47,515 nucleotides of DNA from a virus, in IMG/VR virus record IMGVR_UViG_3300036770_001217, positions 1 through 47,515 of that record. The stretch is one strand, 5' to 3'. The stretch's first letter is position 1. Every line of letters begins with the position of its first letter. A model generated the notes under the pieces. The model saw nothing but the letters and a program-made list of their open reading frames with translations, ran no database searches and was not told the origin of the DNA. This document shows, piece by piece, positions 1 through 41,907 of the stretch. Position numbers and translations under genes: made by a program.

Positions 1-221
1 TTAAATCTTATGGTGAGTTTAATCCCACCACCTGTAATACCTTTTTGCATTTTGCCATCTTTAGGTTTAAACGCATGCCCTTCAAGATAGGCTTGTAACT
101 CAAGATTTTTTGCTATTTCTTTATCTAAAGTTGCCCTTCCGAAAGCACCAGTACCATATTGACTGCTGGCACCTTGTCCAGACAAACCAAACCGCGCTTC
201 TTTTTTCTTATCGTCAGCCAT
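1..221 (-). CDS. Edge-truncated small phage protein (N-terminal 73 aa)
   Basis: The frame starts at the ATG at 221 and runs off the left edge without a stop, giving 73 complete codons. The N-terminus is MADDKKKEARFGLSG, followed by Gly/Ser-rich and charged sequence ending in a GITGGGIKLTIRF segment. The ATG overlaps the TAA of the upstream gene (TAATG), as throughout this operon, which supports the start. It is the last gene of the leftward small-gene series in the window. No function can be assigned; small basic or glycine-rich virion-associated proteins are common at this place in related phages. Its frame would continue into the open frame at the right edge if the two ends were joined. Confidence 0.6.
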   Translation of the reverse strand, partial: MADDKKKEARFGLSGQGASSQYGTGAFGRATLDKEIAKNLELQAYLEGHAFKPKDGKMQKGITGGGIKLTIRF

Positions 222-454
222 TATCGAAACCTCGCTGTCTTCTTTGCAATTCCTGCTGGTTGTTTAACGAATTGCTTTCCACTAGCTTTGCCAGCTCTTT
301 TAGCTCGCGTCGTCGCTGCATACTCTGCTGGAGATAGAGATTGGATCGCTTTCTCTGGTAAATAACGCTCGCCTGTAACGGAAGATTTCTTGCCACTCTT
401 AGTCCTCCAACGCTGGCGCCCCCAATCAACGAGGCTTTGTTGAGACTTCTTCAT
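221..454 (-). CDS. DUF5872-like small basic protein
   Basis: 77 aa, strongly basic, with the series WGRQRWRTKSGK, then GERYLPEKAIQSLSP, EYAATTRAKRAG and GKQFVKQP. This pattern matches what I remember of the DUF5872 family, found in phages and in large DNA viruses; its function is unknown. The basic charge and the position among virion genes suggest DNA or capsid association, which is inference. Its start overlaps the stop of the preceding gene by four bases (ATGA) and its stop overlaps the next start, so translation is probably coupled. Confidence 0.75.
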   Translation of the reverse strand: MKKSQQSLVDWGRQRWRTKSGKKSSVTGERYLPEKAIQSLSPAEYAATTRAKRAGKASGKQFVKQPAGIAKKTARFR

Positions 455-738
455 CCACGGTACCCGCCGCCTTTTTCCTTGTACTTCTTAGCCAAAAGTT
501 GGCTTTTCCTCGCTGACCATTCCCCAGCCTTAGTGCCATGCGTAGACGCTGCCTTAATCTGCTCAAAAAGCTTCTTACGCATTGAAGGCTTTGTATAAAC
601 GCCTGCCTCATTAACGCGAGATTTAACCTTGCCGCCATCCTTATACGTCGTGAACGTGTCACCATCTTTGCGCCTTCCTGTCTTAGCGTTAGGCATCTTA
701 GAAGGGCGGATAGCGCCCATCCCGCGAGAGGGCATCAT
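451..738 (-). CDS. Small basic phage protein, partner of the DUF5872-like gene
   Basis: 95 aa, Lys/Arg/Gly-rich, with a middle segment KPSMRKKLFEQIKAAS and a C-terminus WSARKSQLLAKKYKEKGGGYRG. The end pattern (basic helix followed by GGGYRG) is familiar from small virion-associated proteins of aquatic phages and usually sits beside a DUF5872 gene, as here. No enzymatic motif is visible. Two ATG codons stand in tandem at the start; either could be used, preceded by a purine-rich AAGGCGGGG about 10 bases upstream. Function unknown. Confidence 0.7.
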   Translation of the reverse strand: MMPSRGMGAIRPSKMPNAKTGRRKDGDTFTTYKDGGKVKSRVNEAGVYTKPSMRKKLFEQIKAASTHGTKAGEWSARKSQLLAKKYKEKGGGYRG

Positions 739-1035
739 TTAGCAGGCCCCGCCTTTAGCCATTTTGGCTTTGCCACCGTAGGCCATTTTCTTAGCCTTAC
801 CGGCTTTGTCCATCTTGTTGCCAGCCATCTTGATCATTTCTGCGCCACGCTTAGATTTCTTTTGAACCGAATGCTCGCCCTTAGAAGCCATCCGACCGCC
901 TGTTGACATCTTCTTCATATCTTTCATTTCAAACTCCTTACCAACTGATTGAGGGACGCCAACCTTCTTAGCAAACTTGGGCGAGTTGGCAACCGCCCGC
1001 ATAAATTTTTCCTGCTTCTTACTCACCGTGGGCAT
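739..1035 (-). CDS. Small Lys/Gly-rich protein with SKKQEKFMRAV N-terminus
   Basis: 98 aa. I chose the ATG at 1035 because it overlaps the TAA of the preceding gene (TAATG); a longer reading from 1074 would run back through the repeated C-terminal tag of the neighbour. The N-terminal SKKQEKFMRAVANSPKFAKK resembles the small DUF3008-type 'KSKAQQRFM' proteins, and the rest is Lys/Gly/Met-rich low complexity ending in MAKGGAC. Likely a small virion-associated or DNA-binding protein. No catalytic motif. Confidence 0.65.
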   Translation of the reverse strand: MPTVSKKQEKFMRAVANSPKFAKKVGVPQSVGKEFEMKDMKKMSTGGRMASKGEHSVQKKSKRGAEMIKMAGNKMDKAGKAKKMAYGGKAKMAKGGAC

Positions 1036-1388
1036 TACACCATCTTCCCACGAGTCTTGCCACGAATTGCACACCCATCAGCCCGCTTAGATGCAGATGA
1101 AACCATCCCGCCTTTTGCCTTCTTTACGGGCTCTTCCTTCTTCTTGTCTCCAGTGAATCCAAGACGATCCAAACCTTCGCTAAGCTTTGTGGCGCCATAT
1201 CTAACGCCTTTCTTGATGCCCAAGAAATCGTCAGTAATCTTAGATTCTTTCAAGCGCTTAGTGCGCTCGGAGTCTTTGCTTTCTTCTTGGGACGCTTGCC
1301 CATCTATTTTTTCACGAACCTTTTCTGCGGCTTTTTCTGCATAAGGTTTCGTCACTTTCTTGGCAATCATGCTTTCTATAACAGCCAT
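1035..1388 (-). CDS. Virion-associated protein with RADGCA C-terminal tag (copy 1)
   Basis: 117 aa from the ATG at 1388, one base after the TGA of the preceding gene. The N-terminal two thirds are helical and highly charged (MAVIESMIAKKVTKPYAEKAAEKV), unlike its neighbours. The last 21 residues, SSASKRADGCAIRGKTRGKMV, are nearly identical to the ends of the next three upstream genes. Bodies differ while tails are shared, so the tail behaves as an exchangeable module. A role in targeting to the virion or binding a common partner is inference. Confidence 0.7.
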   Translation of the reverse strand: MAVIESMIAKKVTKPYAEKAAEKVREKIDGQASQEESKDSERTKRLKESKITDDFLGIKKGVRYGATKLSEGLDRLGFTGDKKKEEPVKKAKGGMVSSASKRADGCAIRGKTRGKMV

Positions 1389-1389
1389 C

Positions 1390-1620
1390 TCACACCATCC
1401 TTCCGCGAGTTTTACCTTTAATTGCACAACCATCGGCCCGCTTTGAAGCTGAAGAAACTACACCGCCTTTTTTCATAGCCTGTGGTTTTTGTTTTTTCTG
1501 TTCATCCATAAGTCGGTTACCAGATGCTGATTCAAACATAACACCAGGCCCAAAACCTTTAGTTGGATCTTCGGTAGTAAGCCTAATAGCCGCTTTATCG
1601 GGGTCTTTAGTTGTAAGCAT
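1390..1620 (-). CDS. Small protein with RADGCA C-terminal tag (copy 2)
   Basis: 76 aa from the ATG at 1620, which overlaps the preceding TGA (TGATG); a GTG one codon earlier is also possible. The body is short and polar (MLTTKDPDKAAIRLTTEDPT) with a KKQKPQAMKKGG linker, then the shared tag SSASKRADGCAIKGKTRGRMV at the C-terminus. About 30% of the protein is the tag. No known domain is recognised in the body. Translation is coupled to both neighbours. Confidence 0.65.
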   Translation of the reverse strand: MLTTKDPDKAAIRLTTEDPTKGFGPGVMFESASGNRLMDEQKKQKPQAMKKGGVVSSASKRADGCAIKGKTRGRMV

Positions 1621-1922
1621 CACACCATCCTTCCCTTAGTCTTACCACGGACAGCGCAACCATCGGCACGCTTAGAGGCTGAATATTTAACGATGCCACC
1701 TTTAGCTGCGGTATGTTTTCTTTTTATAACGTGCTCTTTACGCACATCCCCGCCCATATTCGGTTGTTTAACCATATTATCGTCCCTATGATATCCAGGC
1801 TCTACCGTCTTAATCCTAGGCCCAGGTGGGGGGATAATTTTAATTTCTGACATTGGTTTTTCATCGGGATCAATTTCAATATCCCGCTTACGAACCTCAG
1901 ACTGGGTGTGCTTTTTCTTCAC
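1620..1922 (-). CDS. Small protein with RADGCA C-terminal tag (copy 3)
   Basis: 100 aa if started at the GTG at 1922, directly after the TAG of the preceding gene; this start copies the arrangement of the other tagged genes. Reading from an upstream ATG at 1964 would translate the tag-coding DNA of the neighbour in another frame. The body has an acidic stretch (RDIEIDPDEKP), a Pro-rich IIPPPGPRIKT segment and a basic region, then the shared tag YSASKRADGCAVRGKTKGRMV. No enzymatic motif is visible. Confidence 0.6.
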   Translation of the reverse strand: MKKKHTQSEVRKRDIEIDPDEKPMSEIKIIPPPGPRIKTVEPGYHRDDNMVKQPNMGGDVRKEHVIKRKHTAAKGGIVKYSASKRADGCAVRGKTKGRMV

Positions 1923-1924
1923 GA

Positions 1925-2686
1925 CTACACTATCTTTCCACGGGTCTTGCCACGGACGGCACAACCATCGGCCCGTTTAGAGGCTGAGGACTTAACAATG
2001 CCTCCCTTTTTCATTCCGGCGGCAGCACGACGCTCTTTGCCCTCTTGGCGGATACGCTCATACTCTTTGTATCCTGTATTGAGAAACTTGCCAGTTGGTT
2101 TTGGAGCGGTGTCTCGTTTCCTCTGTTCAGCCATTTCTTGCGCTCGACGAGCAGCCGCTATAGCATCTTGTTCTTGCATATATTGAGTGCGCTCATCACG
2201 CCTACGCGCAGCAGTTGTAGCAGCCTCAAGACGATCTATATCTTGAGTAGACGGCCCTTGATTTTTTGAAGATTTTGCAGCTGGCTTGGCTAGTTCAGTA
2301 GTGTATTTCTTCCCGCCAAACGTAAACGTCTTATCCCCGGCTTTACGCGCTGCAGCAAATGCTTGACCAAAAGATTGTCTTTGTGGCGCCTCTGGTTTTA
2401 CCACGCTTACCTGAGCTTCTCGGGCTACGGTGGTTCTATTAGCAGGAGGTTCTTCAGCCTTTTTTAAGTTCTTGGCATCCTCTGTTTCAGAGTATGGGGT
2501 CATGTCAGGGGCGGGAATGGACCGGCCACGGCCAGCGCCAAAACGCTTATAAGCCTCTGAGGTGGGGTCATCAATGTTCCCCATGCGGAGACGCTCAAAG
2601 AAACCGACCTTTTCCCCTTCGGAAGCTTTTAGACCACGGCGCTTATCATCAACATCACCCCCGTTTTGAAACTTGCGTTTTTTCAT
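1925..2686 (-). CDS. Charged, disordered virion-type protein with RADGCA tag (copy 4)
   Basis: 253 aa, rich in Lys, Arg, Ala and Glu and probably largely disordered or coiled. Around residues 100-130 it carries SFGQAFAAARKAGDKTFTFG followed by GKKYTTELA, a segment that recurs in many uncultured aquatic phage proteins. Residues 150-200 form a charged helical stretch. The end is the shared SSASKRADGCAVRGKTRGKIV tag. It is the first and longest of the four tagged genes in transcription order. A structural or internal virion role is likely from context; no direct proof is visible. Confidence 0.7.
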   Translation of the reverse strand: MKKRKFQNGGDVDDKRRGLKASEGEKVGFFERLRMGNIDDPTSEAYKRFGAGRGRSIPAPDMTPYSETEDAKNLKKAEEPPANRTTVAREAQVSVVKPEAPQRQSFGQAFAAARKAGDKTFTFGGKKYTTELAKPAAKSSKNQGPSTQDIDRLEAATTAARRRDERTQYMQEQDAIAAARRAQEMAEQRKRDTAPKPTGKFLNTGYKEYERIRQEGKERRAAAGMKKGGIVKSSASKRADGCAVRGKTRGKIV

Positions 2687-2687
2687 G

Positions 2688-2933
2688 TCAACCCCTTTTA
2701 GCTAAAAGGTCAATCTTGGCCTCTAATCGCTTGAAGCCGTCGTCAAAATGTTCTCGGATCTTATCCAAGTCCTGTCTCACCTCAGCACGAGTAATGTGTT
2801 CTCGTGCAACTTCCTCACGAGTTTTATTCAGCAGAATACTAATCCGCTGTAGCTCGTCGAATTTTCCCTTAAGCAGCATGCCCATCACCGCCACTATTGC
2901 CGTGAGCAAGACATTCCAAAGCATCATTTCCAT
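2688..2933 (-). CDS. Small membrane-anchored coiled-coil protein, holin-like candidate
   Basis: 81 aa. Residues 4-21 (MLWNVLLTAIVAVMGMLL) form one hydrophobic segment. It is followed by a long charged heptad-like helix (residues 23-78: KFDELQRISILLNKTREE and onward). One N-terminal membrane segment plus a coiled coil is seen in some phage holin or spanin-like proteins, and this is the best lysis candidate in the window. The assignment rests on topology only. Its stop abuts the next gene. Confidence 0.5.
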   Translation of the reverse strand: MEMMLWNVLLTAIVAVMGMLLKGKFDELQRISILLNKTREEVAREHITRAEVRQDLDKIREHFDDGFKRLEAKIDLLAKRG

Positions 2934-3215
2934 TTAGCATTTCCACCTTTTTCTCGCCTGCCGGATGCGGCTGTTGGGGTCTTTTGCAGCTTCAGGAAAC
3001 TTCTTCATCTGCCCTAAAGAGCGAGCACAGAATGACTTCCTACGCTTAGCTCTTTCTCCAGTGGGCTTATCTTCTGTCACCGCAGTCTTGAGCTTAGAGC
3101 CTGGATTAGCACGACGATAGGCAGCTACGCCTTTCTCAGTCATACCTGCACCCTGCTTAGTCGGGCGGAAGTTGCCAGACTTCACAGAGGTTTTAATCCC
3201 CATACCCTTAGCCAT
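2934..3215 (-). CDS. DUF6321-like small basic protein
   Basis: 93 aa, very basic. It contains GMTEKGVAAYRRANPGSKLK, then AKRRKSFCARSLGQMKKFP and a C-terminal ARKRWKC with two cysteines far apart. This arrangement matches the DUF6321 pattern I know from phage and giant-virus proteins; the function is unknown. Start ATGGCTAA overlaps the stop of the previous gene by eight bases. Basic charge suggests DNA or RNA contact (inference). Confidence 0.75.
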   Translation of the reverse strand: MAKGMGIKTSVKSGNFRPTKQGAGMTEKGVAAYRRANPGSKLKTAVTEDKPTGERAKRRKSFCARSLGQMKKFPEAAKDPNSRIRQARKRWKC

Positions 3216-5193: not shown

Positions 5194-6102
5194 TTAAGCG
5201 CCGGGGCTGCCGAACATTCCAAGCGGATCGGAAAATCCAAAACTATAGCGCTCTCTTGATTTGTACCTGACGTTACCGGTGTCAAAGTCACCATCCATTG
5301 AGTTCGACAAAGGTGTACGCACAAAGTGCTTCATGCCGTTGGGAACATCAGTGGTCAGGAACCAAGCATCCGTATCTGTCAACCAGTGGTTGATAGCGTA
5401 ACCGCCAGGGATAGCGCCGTTGTTCTTCAGAGCATTGATATCGTTGTCAGCGGTACCGACGCGGAGTTCAGTCTCAAGAATACGGGTTGCCACGAACTGA
5501 AGGTTAGTGGGGATGATCAGCTTCCGGGGCTTAGCAGCGATCAGCAGGCCACGCTCGTCTGTCCACAGGGAGATCTGAATGACTGCCGCCTCAAGGGAGG
5601 TTTCAGACAGGTCTGCCGGGGTTGCCGGAGTGTTGCTGTTAACGCCGCCAGATACTAGCGGGTGCTGGGTAGAGAACAGAGGAACACCGTCACCGCCGGG
5701 GAAAGAAGCACTGAAACCGTTGTTAAGAACGGATGCGCCCTTTACCTCTTTGGTGTACGCCATAGCACGGGCCAGCGACTTGGTATAGCGCGTAGACAGG
5801 GAGTCATAGAGGTTGTCCTCAATAGCCTCTTCAGTCAGCGAAAATCCAAGAGCAATGGTCTCGTGGGTATAGCGAGCGGTGAACACTTCCTGCGCGTTAT
5901 CGTAGGCAATTGCGCTGCCTTCGTTCTTCACCGGGGCGGCGGAGAATCCAGACAGTTTGGTTTCCTCTTCAAACGAACGCTCAGAAGTCTCGGTCTCGTA
6001 AATCTCCTTGTACTCTTCGCCGTAGCGAGCGTACTCCAGACCAAACAAAGCGTTCAGGCCGGGAAGGAGTTCTTTAAGTAGTTGTGCACGTGAAATAGCC
6101 AT
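5194..6102 (-). CDS. Major capsid protein
   Basis: 302 aa. N-terminus MAISRAQLLKELLPGLNALF, followed by SERSFEEETKLSGF, a TARYTHETIALGFSLTEEAI segment and C-terminal KSRERYSFGFSDPLGMFG. These are hallmarks of a widespread major capsid protein family of marine and freshwater phages, probably HK97-fold (the fold is family knowledge, not seen). Its place after portal, scaffold and accessory head genes and in front of a strong terminator fits. An AAGGAG site precedes the ATG. Length is normal for the family. Confidence 0.9.
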   Translation of the reverse strand: MAISRAQLLKELLPGLNALFGLEYARYGEEYKEIYETETSERSFEEETKLSGFSAAPVKNEGSAIAYDNAQEVFTARYTHETIALGFSLTEEAIEDNLYDSLSTRYTKSLARAMAYTKEVKGASVLNNGFSASFPGGDGVPLFSTQHPLVSGGVNSNTPATPADLSETSLEAAVIQISLWTDERGLLIAAKPRKLIIPTNLQFVATRILETELRVGTADNDINALKNNGAIPGGYAINHWLTDTDAWFLTTDVPNGMKHFVRTPLSNSMDGDFDTGNVRYKSRERYSFGFSDPLGMFGSPGA

Positions 6103-30328: not shown

Positions 30329-30634
30329 TCAGAAAGGAATCTCAGAATCGTCCAAGGGCGGCTGCTCTTGGGGTTTAGGCTCTGGTTTGGGCTCTGGCTT
30401 AGGCTGCTTAACATAAGGCGCCTGGATGCTTAAACCCAGGTACTCCGCCCCCTTGGCGCTGATGTTCTCCCAAGCAGATATGTCCATCACTACTAGTTCC
30501 CCATCCTGCTCCAGCATCTTCTCTAGGAACTCCCGAGACAGGTGGATCTGACCACGCCGGTCTGGATGCTTGTCACTTTGTTTGTTATGGTTTGTGAATA
30601 ACGTACCGGTGTTTGGTTTTTGCTGGTAGTTCAT
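30329..30634 (-). CDS. Small protein with SSB-type acidic C-terminal tip
   Basis: 101 aa. The N-terminal part (TGTLFTNHNKQSDKHPDRRG, then IHLSREFLEKMLEQDGELVV and YLGLSIQAPYVKQ) has a short beta-sheet pattern but is too small and different for a full OB-fold SSB. It has a PKPEPKPEP linker and ends DDSEIPF, the tip by which SSB binds RecO, exonuclease I or PriA. It sits next to ERF, so it may recruit host proteins to recombination. Gene overlaps ERF by four bases. Confidence 0.65.
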   Translation of the reverse strand: MNYQQKPNTGTLFTNHNKQSDKHPDRRGQIHLSREFLEKMLEQDGELVVMDISAWENISAKGAEYLGLSIQAPYVKQPKPEPKPEPKPQEQPPLDDSEIPF

Positions 30635-31329
30635 GCGGCCTCCTGGAATTTGTTCTTGGTGTTGGTAAAGATGGTCATCAAGTCTTTGTGGGCTGAAGCA
30701 TCTACATTCTTCAACGTCTCAAACAAAGATTTGTTCTTTTTGTAGATCGCCATGACATCATCTTTAGACTGAGCAGCTTGCAAAGCAATAGTCGATGCCT
30801 TGTTGACAAGGGCTAACCACTCTTCAGAATCCTCATCTGGCTCAGGTGGAGCATTGATCTGCCAGCTTCCCTCAGCACCCACTATCCTGGGCTTTGGTTC
30901 TGGGCTTTTCGCTTCTGGCTTGGGTTCAGGTTTGGGTTCGGGCTTCTTTTCCACACTACCGGTAGTGGCATCCAGAGCATCATGCTCGACAATCTCAAAT
31001 GCCGCCATCCACATGTAACGTCTGAGGTAAGTCTGAACCGCCCCTAGATTCTGAATATTGTGGGAACCTTTCAGTTCTATAGATCCCATGGGGGAACTAA
31101 AGACTATGCAGTCGCTACTAGTGGTGTCGTAGATGTTCAGATAGGCCATCCCATCGGTGAAACTAATCACCCCGCAAAGGCCCACTTCGTTACAGATCTC
31201 TTGAACAGACGGGAGGAAATCTCCTAGTTCAAAGTATTCGTACCCAGCAAACTTGTTCTTGCCGGACTTAGTGAGTTTTCGGCCCTGGAGTTTGACCCGG
31301 GCCTGTTGAAGCTTAGCGTATACAGTCAT
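30631..31329 (-). CDS. erf: ERF-family ssDNA annealing protein
   Basis: 232 aa. Residues 3-115 (VYAKLQQARVKLQGRKLTKS, FAGYEYFELGDFLPSVQEIC, then SPMGSIELKGSHNIQNLGAV and QTYLRRYMWMAAFEI) follow the ERF superfamily core. After a repeated PKPEPKPEPKPE linker, a helical C-terminal domain comes (residues about 165-230). ERF proteins anneal single strands for phage recombination and circularisation, with a partner exonuclease, here the PD-(D/E)XK protein upstream. Translation is coupled through TAATG. Confidence 0.88.
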   Translation of the reverse strand: MTVYAKLQQARVKLQGRKLTKSGKNKFAGYEYFELGDFLPSVQEICNEVGLCGVISFTDGMAYLNIYDTTSSDCIVFSSPMGSIELKGSHNIQNLGAVQTYLRRYMWMAAFEIVEHDALDATTGSVEKKPEPKPEPKPEAKSPEPKPRIVGAEGSWQINAPPEPDEDSEEWLALVNKASTIALQAAQSKDDVMAIYKKNKSLFETLKNVDASAHKDLMTIFTNTKNKFQEAA

Positions 31330-31481
31330 TACGAAATCCTTTTGTAGTATTCGTCAACCAACTCATCGGCAAAGTTGGCAAGGTCACTGGTAAAGTTTTT
31401 ATCTGCCAACCAGTCCATGACTTCAGCATTAGCCGCCAAAGCCAGCATGAACTTAAGTAGCAGTTCCTGTCTTGTTTCCAT
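31329..31481 (-). CDS. 50-aa helical protein between exonuclease and ERF
   Basis: METRQELLLKFMLALAANAE then VMDWLADKNFTSDLANFADE and LVDEYYKR. Start at 31481 with ACCAGGAGAGCATCA before it; it overlaps the exonuclease gene end by 29 bases. The pattern is typical of small proteins next to phage recombinases ('AA.A..FA..LADEY...'). Function unknown. Confidence 0.65.
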   Translation of the reverse strand: METRQELLLKFMLALAANAEVMDWLADKNFTSDLANFADELVDEYYKRIS

Positions 31482-32488: not shown

Positions 32489-32941
32489 ATGTTGTATCTC
32501 GGTATCGATCCTGGCTTTACTGGCGCATGGGGCCTCATAAATCACCACGGAGATTACGTCGGCTGCGGGGACATGGTTCACAACGACAAGTGGATTGACA
32601 TAAATTTTGTCTATCGAGAAATATCTTCGATTAAAGAAAACGATGACCTGATGATAGTGGTAGAGGCAGTCCACGCCATGCCAAAGCAGGGAGTCTCTAG
32701 TTCCTTCAAGTTTGGGATGGCCTATGGAGCCGCTCTATGCCTAGCGCAAAGGTTCTTAGTAGAGTGGGAACTAGTAACGCCTAAGACCTGGAAGGGCGAT
32801 ATGGGCCTGACTTCAGTGAAGACAGACAGCCTAGACATGGCAAGGAAACTTTGGAAAGAAGCCCCATTAAAGCGCCAGAAGGACAATGGGAGAGCAGAGG
32901 CTCTCCTCTTAGCGGAATGGCTAAGGCAGGCTTATTTCTGA
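32489..32941 (+). CDS. RuvC-like Holliday junction resolvase
   Basis: 150 aa from the ATG at 32489, preceded by ATAAGGAAACAGTT; an ATG 24 bases earlier has no such site. LYLGIDPGFTGAWGLI (Asp7) at the start, MIVVEAVHAMPKQGVSSSFK with Glu in the middle and KDNGRAEALLLAEWLRQ (Asp, Glu) at the end form the RNase H-like RuvC catalytic set. Size fits phage RuvC-type resolvases. It probably resolves branched DNA before packaging. Overlaps the convergent giant gene by ten bases. Confidence 0.9.
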   Translation: MLYLGIDPGFTGAWGLINHHGDYVGCGDMVHNDKWIDINFVYREISSIKENDDLMIVVEAVHAMPKQGVSSSFKFGMAYGAALCLAQRFLVEWELVTPKTWKGDMGLTSVKTDSLDMARKLWKEAPLKRQKDNGRAEALLLAEWLRQAYF

Positions 32942-35900
32942 GTTTCAGCCACTCTGTCGTTGAACCGCTTCATCTGGGCGGCTATCTGGTTCTCTAGCAC
33001 CTTGACTTGCTCTTTGGGGGCGCCCTTCTCTAACAGGATGTCACGGCGCTTACGCAGGGTCTGGATGTTTCGCTCCACCTGATTGGCGTAGTTAAACAAC
33101 CTGGCGTCAGGATTGTCCATCAGATACTCTTGGACGTTCTCTTTGTTTGCTCGCCGCCCCTTGATCTCGCGTTCGTGCTTATTGAGCTGAATGATATTGT
33201 TGTAAAACCTGTTACGCTCGGCAGCAAGCCCCTGAGAATCTCCTACGAACCGGCCTACTAGAGGTACCTTATAGATCGGCAAGTCTTCCCCGGTGATCTG
33301 GCTGCGTACAGTCTGCTCGGCCTTCATAATTTCTCGGCCAACACCACCAGTGAACTGACCAATTAGATAGTCAATCTGATCTGGGGTGGGGCTTAGTTCC
33401 CCTGGGGTGTACTTGGTGCCACCAGAAGCGTAGTTCAGGAACTCAGAAAGCCCCTTGCCGACAATACTAGCGGTCTCTCTAGCTCTGGTATATCCGGGTG
33501 TTGGATCAAGGCTGGAGATGTCTTCTTTGGCAATAGGCTTGCCTGTCCAGTCTCGGTTCTCTGTAAGAGCAACAACCGGATCAAGCACTGTTGGGGTGAT
33601 TGTCTGAGCAGACCAACCGGCATTTCCGATAGGGTTAAACATATCTAAGGTAGCCGAGAAGATACTTCCAATTCTCTTAGGCGTATCTTTGAACCCAGAC
33701 AGGAACCATTCCGTAACAATGCGGCTGGTATTAGGAATGACGTTGTAGCCCAAAGGCATGGGTATGGTGATGTACTTTGATCCTCCGATTGGAAGAATAA
33801 TGTTTCTTTCCTTCACAAACTCAGGTGGCTCATCTTCATCAAACCCTGCCATGGCCAATAACATGGCCTGAGCACTTCCCAGAAGCAGCCCGCCCCCGAT
33901 AATCATCTTTCCTGCTGGCCCAGTTAAGGTTTCGTACATCCGCGCAGTACCCTGGACAGAGGCATTAAAGAACGCGTATAGGGCACCCATTTGACGGCCT
34001 ATTTGCCCCTTACGGTTAAAGTTCACCGTCAGGTTCTTGGCTATCGAAGCGGCCTGTTGTTTGGTCATACCCTGATCAAGTGCGACCTTATATGCAGACA
34101 GACGTACAGCGTTTTCCATCGTCTGGTTATAGTCAGACAACCAGTCAAATATGGGAGTTGCAGACTTACGAACAACCTCTATGGGAGCTTTCAGCGTACC
34201 GCCTGCCGTGATGAATTGACCAAAAGTACTTTTTGTCCAAGAGGAAGGATCAAGGATTCGTTGCAACGCCTCAGCCCTTTCTTGGCTGCGGCTGAACATG
34301 TCTCTAAATCCGGTCTGCCCACCCTCTTGTTGGAACTCCTCCCATAGCTGTGCCCAAGGGCGATTGGTAGGTGGTTGACCCTTGCGTTTAGCACGCTCTT
34401 CTCCATAGATTCCACGAAGAGCGGGGCCAACACCAGCAAGAACCTGCTTTTGCTTTCCAGCAATCGGTGTGGTGCTAAGCTGCAACAACGCACTTTGCAC
34501 GTCACGGGTAAAGTTAATTACACCAAAGATCGGGTTGTACTGCGTATTGATTTTGGCAAAGTATTGGGTAAACGCTTGCGTAACACCAAGGGCTTTACTT
34601 AGCTGATCTACGTCTAGGTTCTTTAACGACTCAACCATCCTAACTGCACGAGGATCATTGGAGTTGAAGATGATGAACTTCTCTTCTCCGTTGATACGGA
34701 CAGGCAGAGACAGAGCACCAGTAATCAGCCGCTCATTCGGTATCTCTTTAACCGTATTGGTCGCCTTGTCGATCTCACGACGAGTCGGTGTGTTGGCAAT
34801 ATTCTCAGCGTCTATAGGGTTGATCCCCATTGAGACAAGATCGCTCATTAGCTGTAGAGGATCTTTCTTGACATAAGGATCGTAGGGCAACCAGAAGCCA
34901 GGATTAGGATTGGTAACCGCAAGTGAATAAACCGCCTTCCCTACCCTGATTTTCTCCGCCCGGATGATGGCTCGCTCACGCTGCATAGCTACGTTAGCTA
35001 GTATGTCCACGACCTTTCGGTTAGAACCAACAGAAGACCTGCTAAACGGACCCTTGATAGCGATACCAGATCCAACGCCTACGCCAACATTCTTGACGTC
35101 ATAATCCGCTTCCTCACGGTTTAATGGAACGTAGTGCTTGTAAGCGTTATTCCAGTTATCAATTACTCCTTGTTTCTCTTGGCCGCTTGAGACAATAAGA
35201 TCCTGTGTTCCTTGGACGATCTTATCGACCATCTTGGCGACGTCTTCAAAGTCTTTCTTCTGCTTAGGAGTCAATCCTGCAAGGTATGCCTTAGCATCTG
35301 CCGTGAGGATTCCAGATCCACCATCAGGCATATTGGGATCACGCTTGGCATTCTGGATATTCCGTTCTTCAGCATGCCGATTGTGCAGATACTCTTCTAC
35401 CTGTTCCATCGTCAGCCCGCGATCACGCAGCGCTTTCATCAACGGCTCAAGCTCTTTATTCAGAAAGTCATCGGTCTGTTTCGCGGTACGCCCGTGATAT
35501 AGCTCTTCTTGTAGGTACGGGTTCCACTTGTCTATGAGACCTTTACGCTGTTGAGTGATGGCCTGGACAACCCTCTTGGTATCGATGTTCTTGTCTTGTA
35601 GAACGTAGAGGATGTCATCGATCTTGGATTCGTCAGGAGACCCCCAGGTCGCCTTGGGCATCGGCTGACCAAAGATATTTTTGCTAACGTTCTGAGGAAC
35701 CATTGCCCGAACGCCTGTCTCTGTAACAAAGTCTGTGAGCGTTGCATTGTTCATGCGCTCTGGCTTATCCGCCATGAGACGATCAAATACCTGATGTACG
35801 CCCAAGCGGTTATCGAATCCAAAGACCTTCTTCAGGGACTCAATTAACTTACGAACCGCAGACTTAAACCGCTCCCACTGAGTCCCTAGCTTGGCAGCAA

Positions 35901-38900
35901 AGAGTTTTTCAGCGTTTACCGCCCAATACTCTGATGGACTCAGATACTGATAGAAGTCATACGACGGCATGGACTGAACAGTCGCAGCAAAGGACGAATC
36001 GCTAGGCGTGTCTAAAAACTTTAAAACATTTTCAAAAAACAACAGTGACTGCGCGTCTGTGCTTTTTTTGACAGCAGCTTTCAAAGCATCTTGCCAAGAG
36101 TCAATCACTATTTTTCTCTGATCGGCAGTCATCATCTGTTCAAGAGAGTGCATGACTTCATGGCGAACCGTGGAGGGATTCTCAATGCCCCTTGTCCCAT
36201 TCCACAAAGTGACTAACTTCATAAAAGGATCGAAGTTTCCTGTTGCCGCACTAGGTCTCTTGGGAGTTCGAATGGACAACCTTATGCCATTAAGAACCCA
36301 CGGCGTCTTGACATACGCATCACGAATAGTCGCTAGAACATCTGGACTCAGATCACCCTTTTCATAAGCATCTAGGGCGCGGCGCAAGAAGTTCTCTGCG
36401 CTAAGAGAAGGTGCTGCTGAAGCGTCAATGTCTTCTTTTAATTCTTTGGCAAGCTGATCCGTAAGCGCTAGGTTACGTTGCAGGTCAATGCTCGGGCCTT
36501 GGGCAATGTACTGCTTGACTAACTGGCTGCGCTTGGCACGGAGACGGGCGTACTCGGAGATCTTTTCTTCCCTAGTTTGATCTATGTCTGTCTCTACCTG
36601 ATCTTCAGTTATCTGAGGGTATTGGTTGACATCAAAAAGGAAGTCGCTCTTTGATCCAAACTTGGCCCCTTTTGCCAGGATAAAGTTTCCAATCTGCAAC
36701 ACCTCATCCGCGCTGACCACAGGAGTCATTGTGTTGCGATCATAGAAATACGCATGGCGAGTCGGATTGAAACCGATCTGTATATATGCGGGGTCTTTAA
36801 TTAACTCTTGGGCTTGCTTGTATGCGTCCTCTGGGGAGATGCTTACATACTCCCCTTCCATAGTTTGAAGCTTGTCCTTAAACTCGCCAGCCGCAATACG
36901 GAGTGTCTTTGCTTGGTTTCCAACGCCAAACTTGACGTTCTTAATTTTGGCTACGCTGCGGTAGCTCAGAATCTCGCTCGCCTTTGGAGAGGTCAACGTA
37001 GGCTTGGGAGCATGGATAGCAACCACCCAAGTCTGTTTGTTCTCCCAGGCCGGAATGTCCAGCCTTAGACCAACCTTCGTGCCGCTATCTATATCAAGAT
37101 TGGCATACGGTCTCTTATTCTTGTCAAGTGCGTCTTCTATCTTTTGATCGCTCGGGGGCGTAGGAGGCTCTGCATACAAAGTAACAGGGCTGTACTTCTT
37201 GACGGCAGCGTCATATTCCTCTTTGGTGATCTCACCTTTGCGTAGCTTGTCAGCGGCCTCTGTAAGCTCTGGAGACCTTCCCTTCGTAACAACCTTGAAG
37301 TCTGGAAGCGTACCCTCTGCTTGTTTTAGTGCTTTGGCTTCATCGTTACCGAACAGGCTGCTCTGGGAATCAATGTTATAGAGGAAGTTCTGCTTAGACC
37401 CGTACTCAACGCCACGGGCCAGAATCATGTTGCCAATCTGTAGGACCTCATCGGCCTTCACTACCGGTAGTGTTGTGGCTCTGTCAAAGAAATAAGAGTG
37501 CCTGACAGGATCAAATCCTATTTGGACATACCGAGGATCTTTAATAGCTTGCTGCGCTAGGCGATAAGCGGCTTCAGGGGAAATTTCTATGTATTCCCCT
37601 TCCATGGTTTGAAGAGCGTCTTTTCCAGCTCCAACAGCAATTTCCAGTGATTTCTCTTGATTGCCAAGACCAAACGTAACATTCTTGGCCATAGCAACGC
37701 TTCTATATCCAAGAGTAAGGCCGGCACCGCCTGACGTCATTGATTTTCTTGGCTCATGGATTGCCACAACAAAAGTTTTTTTGCGGTTCCAAGCAGGAAT
37801 GTCTAGGCGTAGGCCAACCTTGGTTCCAGTAGGAATAGATATGTTTGCTTTGGGCTGTTGGTTTGAATACAAAGCATTGACTACCTGCTCGTCCGTGGCA
37901 GGCTGTAGTGGCTCGGTATAGACAGGGATAGGGCGATATTTGTTGACCGCCGCATCGTATTCTTCTTTCGTCACTTGCCCAGCCTGAAGTTGAGCTGCTA
38001 GCGCAGCAAGCTCAGGTGAACGCCCAGGAGGTAGCTTCTTCTTGGCCTTGGGAAGCTCTTCGTTTATCTGGCTAAGAGTCTTGGCGTCCTCTCCAAAGAG
38101 GTCTGTCTGAGGGCTGGCTACGTCTATGGTAATAGTTTCTTTAGCCTCTACAGATCTTGGGCTTACCTTGGTTCTTCCAAGCTCTCTCAAATCTTTATCT
38201 AGCTCGACCAATGGACTAGAAAGTAACTTATCTGAGGTGCTAACAAGAGCTTCAAGCGCAGATAAAGTGTTTGTCGGAAGACCAAGTATGCGACGAGCAA
38301 TATCTACCAGCTTGCCAAAAGCTGTAAATTGTTTACTTACTTGGATGTCTTTTAAGTAATTTTGAACATCACCCTCAGACATCCCCATTGCCATCAATTC
38401 ATCTATGTTTGATAGCGTGTACGTAACTTTAAAAATGAATTTTTTATCTTTAACTGGATCGTACTTGTTTGCTTTTAATTCGTCTCTAAACTTTTTTCTC
38501 AGTTCTTGACGAAGACTTTCAAGTTCTTTAATTCGTGGATCTGATTTTTTTAGCCCCGCTGTCTGGATAACTGTTGCCGCATGAATTAGCTCATGCAAAA
38601 TAGTTTGATACTCCAGCCCATTGCCGCGAGGCGCTTCTTTCCCTTGCACCAAACCGTTCAGGCGATAGTCAAACTTGAATCCATCTCTGTTCAGTCTGTA
38701 AGTTACCTTGCCCTTATATCCTTGAACCCGACGGCTGTCGTTAAGGATGATTGGGCCATTCATCTCTATACCGCGAGACGCAAAGTCTTTAATTCTGTTT
38801 TCTATCTTGGACGCTATTTCTTTTGCTAACTCATTTGGCGCGTTATCAACGGCCCATTTAGCCAACCCAGGAACGTCTAATCCTTTTATCTCTTTGTAAA

Positions 38901-41900
38901 TTTGTTCCGCAGACTTTTCTATCTCTGCTTTAAATTCTTTTGGGGCGGGCGGTGGTGTAGGTGCAGGGGGTGGTGCAGGTGGTTTGGTTTCCGTGGGCGG
39001 CTCACCAAACAAGTCTGGTTCTTGCTCAATGCCTTTCAGAGAGTCAAATACCTGATCTAGCGTAGGACGGGGAGGCACCTGTCCAAACATGTCTGGCTCT
39101 TGCGAAACTTGACTAGCGTCCATGGCTGCATCAGCAAGTCTGGATAGACCGTCAGCAATGCGCCTGGTAGATCTACCGCTCTCAGCAATAAACTCCATGA
39201 CCTTCTGAGCATAGGGATCTAACCCAATAGCACCCTGCTTCACGAAGGTAGGCATCTCCTTGATAGGAATGCCTTGACGTACCGCTGACACAAGGTTTTC
39301 GATTCCCTCAACTACCTTTGGCCGAATGTCGTAGTCTCCGGTCCCAGCAAGCTTAACCATCTTGGGAGCAACCCTAGCCAGACTGTTGAGATACATCTTA
39401 GCGTCAGGGTTCGTAGTCGCTGCATACAGGTCTATCAGTGCATCGTTCTCATAGGCGCCATAGAAGATAGCGTTCATTAGCCTAGAACTTGCATCTGGAT
39501 TTGGTAACCCAGTGGCTTTGTTGATAAGTTCAGACTGCTCACTCTCGGGCATGGCCTGAATAAACTGTCTAAGCGTAGAGAGTTGAGGCACGCCTTCTTC
39601 AGTAAACTGAAGCCCTGTGAGATCAAACTTACCCGCTAACCGCTTGAGATCGTTCTTTGCTCTGTCTACAGGTTCAAGCCCAGCGATACCAGAGACGTTA
39701 GATAAGTCACCAATGTTCTCAGGAACCAGCCCTTTTGGCATGATCCTCACAAGAACCGGATTTGGTATAGAAGAAATTACCTGCGGATCGACACCATGAG
39801 ACGGGTCGTTGATAAGTTCATTAAGGTAATTCTCTGTTGTATTGCGGTTGTATGCTTCTTGTATTCCGGCGATACGTCCATTACCAGCAATGGCCCTCAT
39901 CCCAGGGATGCTCATATCCCCGTAATTAGTATTGACCGTGCCATCAGCAAGGTTTGATGTTAAAACTTCTGTGGCTGGAACAACCGCGTAACGAACTGGG
40001 AAGCGTTGCCCATTAGATGCCGTAGCCATATCGGTACGACCTAACAATTCAGTCGGGATGTTTATGTCACTAATAATTACAGGAGCGCCCTCGGCCAATA
40101 CCTTGGAAGGCCCAACAAGAGAGTAATCTGGCGCTGATGCAATCTTCTGCATCTGAGCAACCGATCCTTTGCCAGACCTATCTCGGTTCTGAAACACAGT
40201 TTGCGCGTTTGGTATCTGCCCTTGGAAGTAGTTATCCAGCGCCTGCTGTTCCTCTGGGGTGAACTCCGTCGGCTTAATCTTGGGGGGCAGCCCAGGTGGT
40301 GTTGTAGGTGGTGTTGGCGCTGTACCACCAGGAGGTGTAGGTGGTGTTGTCCCTGTTGGAGGGGGCGGTGTAGGCGGTGCTGATGGAGGAGTGGGCGCTG
40401 ATGGGGTGGGAGGCGCTGATGGAACAAAGGTAGCTGGATTTACGCCAACAAGCATTGCTGCCGTTGAGTTCGCGCCATCAAAGTCATCAAATGTCCCTGC
40501 ATCCGACGTCTGTCCCGTATTCGTATCTACGTAAACTACTTGGAACTTTCCGTTTGGTGCTGGAACAATTCTTACCTGTGTGTTGTTTCCAGCGTCTACA
40601 TATCCACCAAGAAGACCTGGCCCTGGGCTCATAGGTATGACAGGGGATATGCCAGAAGGAGGCGCACCGGGTAGAGTGGGGGTAGGTGGTACAGTGGGGG
40701 GTGTCGTTGGCGCTGCAGCGGTTGGGGGTGCGGCAGGAGCAGGAGGGGCTGCAGGAGGGGCTGTAGGTTGATCTGGCAACGCACCACGTACCATGCCAAC
40801 AGGGGCGCCACCAATAAAGCCCAATACTAAGTTTGCAAAAGAGTCTTCACCAATTTCCTTGATGACTTCCTTGCTGATTCCAATGTCTGCTGCCACACCT
40901 TCTAAGAACTCTTGAGCGCCCTCTTCAGCACCAGCTAATGCACCGCCGATTGCAATACGAGTTAATTTCTGCCGACCAGCCGCATTGATCACTTTGTCTG
41001 CAGCACCGGAGACGATTTTTTGAGTAGCCGCACCACCAATAGTAGCTACCGTTCCTTGTAAGAACGCAGCTTGTTCTGCAGCCCGATTAGAAATTATTTG
41101 TCGCGCTTCTTGAGAAGGAACACCTGCCGCAATTAAATCTTTATAGTACGGACTCGCTGCGGCTAGTTCTACATCAGACTTGCTGTTGACATACTCCTTG
41201 GCATTCTGTGCAGCTTCTCCAGCTGCCATACCACCACCAACGGCACCAGCAGAAATAGGACCTACAGCACCGGCAATCACTACAGGAAGAAGAGACCCAA
41301 GGACGTCTGCCGCCTGGAGGGCGTATCCATACAATGTTGGATTTTCGCCAAAGCTTAATTTGCTGTAGTCCCCGGTCGTTACGGCTTCAAGAATGTTTCC
41401 TTGGACTTGAGATCCCCGGACGGCTTCTAATGCTTCTGGAGACTGACGCTCACGAATAAAGTCAGCTACATCCCGGCCACCCTCAGCAAGTTCTTGCAAA
41501 CCTGGGATTAACGGAATTGATTGATTGATAGCCATATCAGCTTCAATCTTCCGAGCTTTGGTTTGTTCTATTTCTTCTGGTGTTGGTTCTCTGCCAAATA
41601 ACCTGCGACCAAGTTGATACAGTTCACTCTGCTCTAGCAATCCTTCGCCCATTACTTGACGAACAGGAGCACGAACGGCTGCTTCTACGCCAGCAGGAGC
41701 GCCCGTTATACCTTGAATAGCTGATGACAACCCGCGCTTAACTACATCAAACTCTGGAACAGCAGCCTCAGCAAATTCTTTTGCGGATACTCCAAATAAC
41801 GTCGAAACTTCTGCTGGCGGTTTAACTCCTATGCCAGTTAAATACTTGTCTGGATCAAATCCTTGAGAACCAATTCTCCGCAGGTATGCGTCTGGATCGA

Positions 41901-41907
41901 AAGCCAT
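32932..41907 (-). CDS. Giant polyvalent protein (2,991 aa) with ParB-like and metallopeptidase-like domains
   Basis: It takes about 19% of the window. Residues 1-30 repeat FDPDAYL/FDPDKYL. Two Ala/Gly-rich hydrophobic stretches follow around 195-330, then Pro/Thr low complexity (about 375-550). Near 590-790 a DdrB/ParB-like domain has MSIPGMRAIAGNGRIAGIQ. HELIH at 1105-1109 and HEVMH at 1916-1920 are two zinc-peptidase-like motifs. Between them lies a tandem pair of ~225-aa modules. The C-terminal 500 residues have a membrane-like GGGLLLGSAQAMLLAMAGF and PLVGRFVGD, like LPD38. Polyvalent proteins of this build are thought to be injected with phage DNA and act in the new host. Translation coupled by TAATG. 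Confidence 0.85.
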   Translation of the reverse strand: MAFDPDAYLRRIGSQGFDPDKYLTGIGVKPPAEVSTLFGVSAKEFAEAAVPEFDVVKRGLSSAIQGITGAPAGVEAAVRAPVRQVMGEGLLEQSELYQLGRRLFGREPTPEEIEQTKARKIEADMAINQSIPLIPGLQELAEGGRDVADFIRERQSPEALEAVRGSQVQGNILEAVTTGDYSKLSFGENPTLYGYALQAADVLGSLLPVVIAGAVGPISAGAVGGGMAAGEAAQNAKEYVNSKSDVELAAASPYYKDLIAAGVPSQEARQIISNRAAEQAAFLQGTVATIGGAATQKIVSGAADKVINAAGRQKLTRIAIGGALAGAEEGAQEFLEGVAADIGISKEVIKEIGEDSFANLVLGFIGGAPVGMVRGALPDQPTAPPAAPPAPAAPPTAAAPTTPPTVPPTPTLPGAPPSGISPVIPMSPGPGLLGGYVDAGNNTQVRIVPAPNGKFQVVYVDTNTGQTSDAGTFDDFDGANSTAAMLVGVNPATFVPSAPPTPSAPTPPSAPPTPPPPTGTTPPTPPGGTAPTPPTTPPGLPPKIKPTEFTPEEQQALDNYFQGQIPNAQTVFQNRDRSGKGSVAQMQKIASAPDYSLVGPSKVLAEGAPVIISDINIPTELLGRTDMATASNGQRFPVRYAVVPATEVLTSNLADGTVNTNYGDMSIPGMRAIAGNGRIAGIQEAYNRNTTENYLNELINDPSHGVDPQVISSIPNPVLVRIMPKGLVPENIGDLSNVSGIAGLEPVDRAKNDLKRLAGKFDLTGLQFTEEGVPQLSTLRQFIQAMPESEQSELINKATGLPNPDASSRLMNAIFYGAYENDALIDLYAATTNPDAKMYLNSLARVAPKMVKLAGTGDYDIRPKVVEGIENLVSAVRQGIPIKEMPTFVKQGAIGLDPYAQKVMEFIAESGRSTRRIADGLSRLADAAMDASQVSQEPDMFGQVPPRPTLDQVFDSLKGIEQEPDLFGEPPTETKPPAPPPAPTPPPAPKEFKAEIEKSAEQIYKEIKGLDVPGLAKWAVDNAPNELAKEIASKIENRIKDFASRGIEMNGPIILNDSRRVQGYKGKVTYRLNRDGFKFDYRLNGLVQGKEAPRGNGLEYQTILHELIHAATVIQTAGLKKSDPRIKELESLRQELRKKFRDELKANKYDPVKDKKFIFKVTYTLSNIDELMAMGMSEGDVQNYLKDIQVSKQFTAFGKLVDIARRILGLPTNTLSALEALVSTSDKLLSSPLVELDKDLRELGRTKVSPRSVEAKETITIDVASPQTDLFGEDAKTLSQINEELPKAKKKLPPGRSPELAALAAQLQAGQVTKEEYDAAVNKYRPIPVYTEPLQPATDEQVVNALYSNQQPKANISIPTGTKVGLRLDIPAWNRKKTFVVAIHEPRKSMTSGGAGLTLGYRSVAMAKNVTFGLGNQEKSLEIAVGAGKDALQTMEGEYIEISPEAAYRLAQQAIKDPRYVQIGFDPVRHSYFFDRATTLPVVKADEVLQIGNMILARGVEYGSKQNFLYNIDSQSSLFGNDEAKALKQAEGTLPDFKVVTKGRSPELTEAADKLRKGEITKEEYDAAVKKYSPVTLYAEPPTPPSDQKIEDALDKNKRPYANLDIDSGTKVGLRLDIPAWENKQTWVVAIHAPKPTLTSPKASEILSYRSVAKIKNVKFGVGNQAKTLRIAAGEFKDKLQTMEGEYVSISPEDAYKQAQELIKDPAYIQIGFNPTRHAYFYDRNTMTPVVSADEVLQIGNFILAKGAKFGSKSDFLFDVNQYPQITEDQVETDIDQTREEKISEYARLRAKRSQLVKQYIAQGPSIDLQRNLALTDQLAKELKEDIDASAAPSLSAENFLRRALDAYEKGDLSPDVLATIRDAYVKTPWVLNGIRLSIRTPKRPSAATGNFDPFMKLVTLWNGTRGIENPSTVRHEVMHSLEQMMTADQRKIVIDSWQDALKAAVKKSTDAQSLLFFENVLKFLDTPSDSSFAATVQSMPSYDFYQYLSPSEYWAVNAEKLFAAKLGTQWERFKSAVRKLIESLKKVFGFDNRLGVHQVFDRLMADKPERMNNATLTDFVTETGVRAMVPQNVSKNIFGQPMPKATWGSPDESKIDDILYVLQDKNIDTKRVVQAITQQRKGLIDKWNPYLQEELYHGRTAKQTDDFLNKELEPLMKALRDRGLTMEQVEEYLHNRHAEERNIQNAKRDPNMPDGGSGILTADAKAYLAGLTPKQKKDFEDVAKMVDKIVQGTQDLIVSSGQEKQGVIDNWNNAYKHYVPLNREEADYDVKNVGVGVGSGIAIKGPFSRSSVGSNRKVVDILANVAMQRERAIIRAEKIRVGKAVYSLAVTNPNPGFWLPYDPYVKKDPLQLMSDLVSMGINPIDAENIANTPTRREIDKATNTVKEIPNERLITGALSLPVRINGEEKFIIFNSNDPRAVRMVESLKNLDVDQLSKALGVTQAFTQYFAKINTQYNPIFGVINFTRDVQSALLQLSTTPIAGKQKQVLAGVGPALRGIYGEERAKRKGQPPTNRPWAQLWEEFQQEGGQTGFRDMFSRSQERAEALQRILDPSSWTKSTFGQFITAGGTLKAPIEVVRKSATPIFDWLSDYNQTMENAVRLSAYKVALDQGMTKQQAASIAKNLTVNFNRKGQIGRQMGALYAFFNASVQGTARMYETLTGPAGKMIIGGGLLLGSAQAMLLAMAGFDEDEPPEFVKERNIILPIGGSKYITIPMPLGYNVIPNTSRIVTEWFLSGFKDTPKRIGSIFSATLDMFNPIGNAGWSAQTITPTVLDPVVALTENRDWTGKPIAKEDISSLDPTPGYTRARETASIVGKGLSEFLNYASGGTKYTPGELSPTPDQIDYLIGQFTGGVGREIMKAEQTVRSQITGEDLPIYKVPLVGRFVGDSQGLAAERNRFYNNIIQLNKHEREIKGRRANKENVQEYLMDNPDARLFNYANQVERNIQTLRKRRDILLEKGAPKEQVKVLENQIAAQMKRFNDRVAETQK
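36620..38035 (-). repeat. Tandem ~225-aa duplication within the giant protein gene
   Basis: Two copies, about residues 1291-1520 (38035-37345) and 1535-1760 (37300-36620). Both contain GRSPEL, (V/I)TKEEYDAAV.KY.P, GTKVGLRLDIPAW, YRSVA.(A/I)KNV.FG.GNQ.K, LQTMEGEY, QIGF(D/N)P.RH.YF(F/Y)DR and VLQIGN.ILA.G. Amino-acid identity is high in the motifs, but DNA has diverged strongly, so the event is old and both copies seem selected. Confidence 0.88.

What the first reader, a model, noticed from the sequence alone, without database searches (positions are those of the whole stretch)
1035..1990. Four consecutive genes share one C-terminal peptide tag
Unrelated protein bodies end in SASKRADGCA(I/V)(R/K)GKT(R/K)G(R/K)(M/I)V. 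DNA has diverged at third positions while the peptide is kept, which points to selection for the peptide. I know RADG(I/C)A.RGKT+G-type tails from single virion proteins of other phages; a row of four suggests a family of cargo delivered to one acceptor, like a sorting tag for the capsid interior or the virion surface.
Basis: partly seen in the sequence, partly recalled or inferred. Interest (0 to 1): 0.72.

Follow-up and report, generated by a model that had tools for sequence, protein, structure and literature searches.

The report
Shared C-terminal tag on phage genes
A common group of mainly aquatic phages puts the same short tail peptide on the ends of many otherwise unrelated small proteins made from a fast-changing gene slot beside the capsid genes, much as a postal label would; it probably marks proteins for loading into the virus particle, but no experiment has yet shown where they go.

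Summary
Four consecutive minus-strand late genes (1035-2686) end in one peptide, about KKGGxVxSSASKRADGCAxRGKTRGKMV; their bodies are unrelated. The same tag ends about 290 distinct ORFs in about 170 IMG/VR contigs of one phage lineage (capsid protein mostly 71-91% identical). It sits at a fixed, hypervariable slot, MCP - DUF6321 - holin-like - P0005 - [1-4 tagged genes] - g451 - g221. Of 31 loci chosen by capsid alone, 20 carry the strict tag and 27 a loosened form. The tag is an add-on: three unrelated families (DUF6321, phrog_16759, a 'YRNMS' module) occur with and without it. The four window copies differ mainly at third codon positions, so the peptide is what is kept. The tag is bipartite, [M/Y/F]xxGG plus R(A/G)DG(I/C)Ax(R/K)GKT(R/K)G, and its last codons also look like the next gene's ribosome-binding site. 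Best explanation: a sorting/docking tag that loads rapidly swapped small basic proteins into the virion, a C-terminal counterpart of the T-even capsid targeting sequence. Virion location, acceptor and cargo function are inferred: no proteomics, solved structure, paper or covarying acceptor was found.

The parts
1925..2686 (-). tagged gene A (253 aa): N-terminal MKKRKFQNGGDV element, mostly polar body, C-terminal tag
   Evidence: ORF and translation; body belongs to a cluster of 20 tagged bodies
1925..2014 (-). C-terminal tag of A: MKKGGIVKSSASKRADGCAVRGKTRGKIV + stop
1620..1922 (-). tagged gene B (100 aa from GTG; no similar body found)
1620..1709 (-). C-terminal tag of B: AAKGGIVKYSASKRADGCAVRGKTKGRMV + stop; stop overlaps the ATG of C
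1390..1620 (-). tagged gene C (76 aa); one similar body, in L037
1390..1476 (-). C-terminal tag of C: MKKGGVVSSASKRADGCAIKGKTRGRMV + stop
1035..1388 (-). tagged gene D (117 aa; no similar body found)
1035..1121 (-). C-terminal tag of D: KAKGGMVSSASKRADGCAIRGKTRGKMV + stop; stop overlaps the ATG of P0005
739..1035 (-). P0005 (98 aa), phrog_16759 family; 45 of 77 homologues end in a class-2 tag DGxAxKGKTKGxxxxMxxGGKxC, the window copy keeps only a decayed form (RGEHSVQKKSKRGAEM-like stretch ... GGAC)
   Evidence: in a tagged relative the N-terminal helical domain has pLDDT 81-92 and the tag region about 50
451..738 (-). g451 (95 aa, phrog_17747): conserved 3' boundary gene of the slot
221..454 (-). 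g221 (77 aa, phrog_14910): conserved 3' boundary gene of the slot
2688..2933 (-). small N-terminally hydrophobic (holin-like) protein: conserved 5' boundary gene of the slot
2934..3215 (-). DUF6321 (PF19846) protein; relatives in L065, L082, L106, L131, L161 and L213 have the tag appended after their usual C-terminus
5194..6102 (-). major capsid protein (PF25209 Phage_capsid_4); candidate acceptor, most conserved protein of the lineage
32932..41907 (-). 2991-aa polyvalent protein (LPD38, ddrB-ParB; DarB-like): the type predicted to be packaged and injected

Best explanation
The tail is a short sorting/docking tag. Phages of this lineage keep a cassette slot in the late operon where small, mostly basic, mostly low-hydrophobicity bodies are swapped quickly. 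Each body carries at its C-terminus [MYF]xxGGxV followed by (S)AS(K/S/R)R(A/G)DG(I/C)Ax(R/K)GKT(R/K)G(K/R)xx. The tag, flexible on its own, is recognised by a constant component of the assembling particle (most likely the inner capsid/scaffold surface or the portal/ejection complex), so that whatever body is attached is loaded into the virion and, by analogy with T-even internal proteins, delivered with the DNA. Shown here: the tag, its modularity, its C-terminal position, the fixed late-gene slot, body hypervariability, and peptide-level selection in the window copies. Inferred: virion incorporation, interior location, injection and an anti-host role.
For: In the first pattern scan 142 of 188 tagged ORFs stop exactly 3 residues after the last motif glycine, and most of the rest have a 10-15 aa extension ending in GGxC or GGG-type sequence. 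Bodies form 145 clusters of 279. The tag is gained or lost by three unrelated families: DUF6321, phrog_16759, and the YRNMS module, tagged in L131/L293/L294/L297/L094 and untagged inside an 825-aa protein in L296. The slot is constant between conserved head and late genes. In loci sampled by capsid only, 20 of 31 carry the strict tag and 27 of 31 the loosened one. Substitution pattern of the four window copies. The one body family with a database relative, phrog_16759, shares its N-terminal domain with PHROGs called virion structural protein. The phage encodes other probably delivered proteins: a phrog_4287 DNA ejection protein and an LPD38/ddrB polyvalent protein (PMC5512222). Precedent for one tag plus unrelated bodies: T-even internal proteins share only the capsid targeting sequence (PMC3012670; PMC12373910).
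Against: No virion proteomics or structure for any phage of this lineage was found. No acceptor was identified: tag type does not covary with MCP, portal, scaffold or decoration protein. None of 105 bodies has a convincing Pfam domain, so no effector function is visible. T-even tags are N-terminal and differ in sequence. Capsid-related phages in other hosts (HTVC023P, CRP-902, DSL-LC04) lack the tag by pattern search, so it is not needed for this capsid type.
Confidence: 0.5

Rival explanations
1. The tail is a nucleic-acid-binding peptide: small basic proteins use it to coat or condense packaged or replicating DNA, with no protein acceptor.
For: Tag net charge is about +5 in about 25 aa, and bodies average +6.6 per 100 aa. 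No protein partner covaries with the tag.
Against: A general charge patch would not need the strict DGxAx(R/K)GKT spacing and the [MYF]xxGG element, or exact C-terminal placement.
Confidence: 0.2
2. The tag docks proteins to the outside of the particle or to the neck/tail/ejection machinery; tagged proteins are variable surface or pilot proteins rather than head cargo.
For: The slot lies between head genes and the ejection/tail-side genes if the record is circular. Several bodies have a short Gly/Ala-rich hydrophobic segment.
Against: Most bodies are polar and low in hydrophobic residues (median 0.21). No fibre or receptor-binding domain was found.
Confidence: 0.15
3. The conserved stretch is kept as a nucleic-acid element: a ribosome-binding/translational-coupling signal and a homology block for cassette exchange.
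For: An ATG lies within -5..+18 of the stop in 229 of 239 tags. The last glycine codon is GGA/GGG in 159 of 239 against 30 and 10 of 239 at two other tag glycines, which fits a Shine-Dalgarno role for the next gene. Where two contigs share flanks but not bodies, similarity resumes in the tag region in 152 of 172 cases. The phage has an ERF annealing protein.
Against: In the window, differences are concentrated at synonymous third positions across the whole 24-codon stretch, which a DNA element would not produce. Resumed similarity at the tag is also what peptide conservation alone would give. So this holds for the last codons only.
Confidence: 0.08
4. [MYF]xxGG and the basic tail form a processing signal (double-glycine cleavage or proteolysis), and the tail is removed during maturation.
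For: GG elements also separate modules inside the 825-aa L296 protein and occur near N-termini of 79 of 292 tagged ORFs (shuffled 7.6). Head proteases remove the T4 targeting sequence (general knowledge).
Against: No dedicated peptidase was recognised beyond HExxH-like motifs read by eye in the polyvalent protein; no cleavage data.
Confidence: 0.07

Closest known systems
T-even (T4) internal proteins and their capsid targeting sequence (CTS)
   Same: Several small proteins per phage share only a targeting peptide; bodies are unrelated and vary between related phages at a hotspot (PMC3012670; PMC12373910).
   Different: CTS is N-terminal, unrelated in sequence, and shown to direct packaging into the scaffold core; here the tag is C-terminal, in Pam1-like-capsid phages, and packaging is not shown.
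Encapsulin cargo-loading (targeting) peptides
   Same: Short peptide on unrelated cargo that is loaded into an HK97-fold shell (PMC8346489, PMC10960027; abstracts); often C-terminal (general knowledge).
   Different: Cargo enzymes of cellular compartments; peptide sequence differs; no shell binding tested here.
Phage polyvalent proteins (P1 DdrB/DarB type)
   Same: Late-gene, predicted packaged and injected; this phage has one (LPD38, ddrB-ParB). The YRNMS module seen with the tag also occurs in a large multi-module protein.
   Different: Polyvalent proteins join modules in one chain; here modules are separate genes carrying a common tag.
phrog_16759 / jumbo-phage virion protein N-terminal domain
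   Same: Neighbour P0005 and about ten of 105 tagged bodies share this domain.
   Different: The jumbo-phage members seen here match only the N-terminal domain, not the tag.

Membership tests
T-even internal proteins with CTS | N-terminal capsid targeting sequence | tested here: not met
   The shared peptide is at the C-terminus
T-even internal proteins with CTS | multiple proteins with unrelated bodies sharing one short peptide | tested here: met
   145 clusters of 279 bodies; four unrelated bodies in the window
T-even internal proteins with CTS | variable gene hotspot | tested here: met
   Fixed slot with changing bodies
T-even internal proteins with CTS | packaged in head and injected | not testable with these tools
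   needs virion proteomics and a delivery assay
Encapsulin-type cargo | peptide binds the inside of an HK97-fold shell | not testable with these tools
   MCP is PF25209 Phage_capsid_4; no complex modelling available; no covariation found
One homologous protein family with a diverged body | detectable common domain in all bodies | tested here: not met
   No body similarity in the window; three independent families gain or lose the tag
Walker A P-loop NTPase | GxxxxGK[ST] between a strand and a helix in a folded domain | tested here: inconclusive
   The core (D)GxAx(R/K)GKT fits the string, but it ends the protein; the related class-2 tag has low confidence and no structure; K is replaced by H in 5 of 239

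The most novel reading that the evidence does not exclude
An abundant aquatic phage lineage has its own C-terminal virion-targeting code (bipartite [MYF]xxGG + RADG(I/C)AxRGKTRG) that loads an open-ended, rapidly swapped repertoire of small proteins into the particle for delivery to the host. The tag could then be used to find hundreds of new injected effectors and to load foreign proteins into virions.
Probability: 0.4. Interest if true: 0.82.

Novelty: new variant of a known kind. Interest (0 to 1): 0.64.

Why it matters
If the tag is a loading signal, it names hundreds of candidate delivered proteins, almost none with a recognised domain, in one of the commonest phage types in these data, from sequence alone. 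It would give a second phage system, after the T-even capsid targeting sequence, in which one short peptide decides what goes into the particle, and it is directly testable by fusing 30 residues to a reporter. The slot is also a natural place to look for anti-defence genes.

Tried and rejected
tblastn of the 29-aa tag against cultured phages found nothing; short, low-complexity queries are probably masked. Text search for RADGIA, RADGCA, RGKTRG, RGKTKG gave no relevant paper. PDB and PHROG searches with the tag gave nothing significant. Pfam on 105 bodies gave two weak single hits judged chance. AlphaFold2 of the YRNMS module failed (pLDDT 39.8, six sequences), so my guess that it is an ADP-ribosyltransferase-like effector is not claimed. 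A Mantel test for an acceptor found none (best g221, rho 0.19, a linked gene). The genome-contig scan gave few true hits (L130, L131, L133); L135 (tag on a bacterial acyltransferase at a contig edge) looks like an assembly chimera. Conservation figures from regex-selected tags (invariant D, G, A, G, T, G; pN/pS 0.32) are partly built in by the search pattern and are not used as evidence; the window copies and the capsid-sampled loci are.

Full report
What is there. The window is a 47,515-base virus record. Its MCP (5194-6102) matches Phage_capsid_4 (PF25209), and the capsid is related to Planktothrix phage Pag-Yong1 and to DSL-LC04, which is annotated with a Pam1 adaptor protein. On the minus strand, downstream of terminase, portal, scaffold-like gene and MCP, four consecutive ORFs (A 1925-2686, B 1620-1922, C 1390-1620, D 1035-1388) end in the same peptide. 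A back-translated core matches 4 times in the window; shuffles give 0.00. Without tails the four bodies have no similarity; with tails each pair aligns at E 1e-12 or better. Between copies, third positions take 11-15 differences per pair and first plus second positions 4-10 over 24 codons, so the peptide is what is kept.

How general it is. Reading all frames gave 188 tagged ORFs; 142 stop exactly three residues after the last glycine, and most of the rest end in a short GGxC or GGG extension. After later scans there were 316 tagged ORFs, 292 of them non-redundant. Their bodies fall into 145 clusters of 279, 106 of them singletons. The scan stopped at its limit, so the true number is larger. 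Of the contigs that include the capsid gene, nearly all carry an MCP 71-91% identical to the window's, although the scan knew nothing of the capsid. Conversely, among 31 loci chosen only for the MCP and holding the whole block, 20 have at least one strict tag and 27 at least one loosened tag, class-2 tags included.

Where it sits. The order is nearly constant: MCP - (DUF6321) - holin-like - P0005 - [tagged genes, 1 to 4] - g451 - g221, with occasional shuffling. Flanking genes are conserved while the bodies are not: window bodies B, C and D had no tblastn relative among the loci and A had three, whereas MCP, g451 and g221 had 52 to 100. In 16 longer contigs (22-66 kb), 1-4 tags were found, clustered in one part of the contig in nearly every case. 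The slot is therefore a hypervariable cassette inside a conserved late operon.

It is an add-on. Three unrelated families occur with and without the tag. (i) The DUF6321 protein (window 2934-3215) normally ends in RxWxC; in L065, L082, L106, L131, L161 and L213 the tag follows. (ii) P0005 (phrog_16759): 45 of 77 homologues end in a class-2 tag DGxAxKGKTKGxxxxMxxGGKxC; the window copy has a decayed version. (iii) A 'YRNMS' module is tagged in L131, L293, L294, L297 and L094 but lies untagged in an 825-aa protein beside terL in L296, where GG-containing linkers separate modules.

Anatomy of the tag. It is bipartite. The first element is GG preceded at -3 by M, Y or F (223 of about 277), often KKGGxV. 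Some 8-10 residues later comes (S)AS(K/S/R)R(A/G)DG(I/C)Ax(R/K)GKT(R/K)G(K/R)xx-stop. The [FYM]xxGG element also lies near the N-terminus of 79 of 292 tagged ORFs, against 7.6 in shuffles, including gene A (MKKRKFQNGG). Net charge is about +5. In a model of the P0005 family from 56 sequences, the N-terminal helical domain is confident (pLDDT 81-92) and the class-2 tag region is not (about 50), as expected for a flexible tail. The invariance of D, G, A, G, T, G in the collected set is partly imposed by the search pattern; looser variants (RGDG, GKTRA*, GKTKC) do occur.

DNA-level side role. An ATG lies within -5..+18 of the tag's stop in 229 of 239 cases, and the last glycine codon is GGA or GGG in 159 of 239 against 30 and 10 at two other tag glycines. 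The tag's 3' end thus also looks like the Shine-Dalgarno of the next gene. This explains codon choice at the end, not the 20-residue peptide.

Within-genome matching. Tags in one genome resemble each other more than tags of different genomes (aa identity 0.803 vs 0.727; permutation sd 0.010), mainly at the I/C position, the following variable residue and R/K. Codon identity at shared residues is only modestly raised (0.486 vs 0.408, with 0.36 vs 0.33 at non-homologous positions), so most copies are old. The tag type does not track divergence of MCP, portal, scaffold, decoration or other genes (rho -0.04 to 0.13; g221 0.19). Either local gene conversion or an acceptor not sampled could explain this; it is not evidence for a particular acceptor.

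Function. Bodies are short (median 104 aa), basic and low in hydrophobic residues (median 0.21), and nearly devoid of database domains. The exception is phrog_16759, whose N-terminal domain is shared with PHROGs called virion structural protein and with small proteins of phiKZ-type jumbo phages. The same phage encodes a DNA ejection protein (43457-44428, phrog_4287) and a 2991-aa LPD38/ddrB-ParB polyvalent protein, a class argued to be packaged and injected (PMC5512222). Tag plus unrelated, exchangeable bodies is what T-even internal proteins look like: they share only a capsid targeting sequence and are injected (PMC3012670; PMC12373910). I therefore favour a virion-loading tag with delivered cargo, at about 0.5; the main rivals are a DNA-binding tail and docking to the outside or ejection machinery.

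Relation to known kinds. It works like a capsid targeting sequence or an encapsulin cargo peptide but is not a member of either: the defining N-terminal CTS is absent, and shell binding is untested. No earlier description was found in the open-access library, which does not hold most subscription journals. Novelty: a new variant of a known kind.

Noticed in passing
window 32932-41907 (-): 2991-aa polyvalent protein with LPD38 and ddrB-ParB, DarB-like by PHROG; two HExxH-like motifs (HELIH, HEVMH) visible by eye.
   Followed up: partly
L296:1312-3789: 825-aa protein beside terL made of modules separated by GG-containing linkers (KHGGVAHMADGG, YKQGGLAHMADGG); one module is the YRNMS module that elsewhere is a tagged single protein.
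   Followed up: partly
window 1925-2686, within gene A; also L009:3887-4474: Internal motif SFGQAFAAARKAGDKTFTFGGKKYTTEL recurs in other tagged bodies (SFSEAFRAARKAGDSTFTWRGKKYTTEM); another short module shared by otherwise different late proteins.
   Followed up: no
L294:5383-5640; L127:26698-27081; L126:23016-23243: Other small late proteins of related phages carry RGxGxAx(K/R)G-type stretches (IRGTGAATKGTMARGPMG, AVRGMGFKG, GRGMGCATRGGG) that resemble the tag core loosely.
   Followed up: no
window 2934-3215 (-): DUF6321 (SFCAR...RxWxC) is a C-terminal module in many PHROG families of different length (at the very end of 336-928 aa profiles); here it stands alone. It looks like a second C-terminal tag system.
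   Followed up: partly
window 44756-45577 (-): Aspartyl/asparaginyl beta-hydroxylase (PF05118, E 9e-41) among the late genes.
   Followed up: no
window 30631-31329 and 31453-32352 (-): ERF annealing protein and a PD-(D/E)XK nuclease, which could drive cassette exchange at short homologies.
   Followed up: no
L135:162-1841: In a Patulibacter MAG contig the tag ends a 560-aa acyltransferase ORF near the contig edge; probably an assembly chimera.
   Followed up: no
L125:21650-22576 (Planktothrix phage Pag-Yong1): Cultured phage with one degenerate tag (YASGGMIGRDGCAKRGRTKGRFI) on a 308-aa hypothetical protein close behind the minor capsid gene; an isolate on which the idea could be tested.
   Followed up: partly
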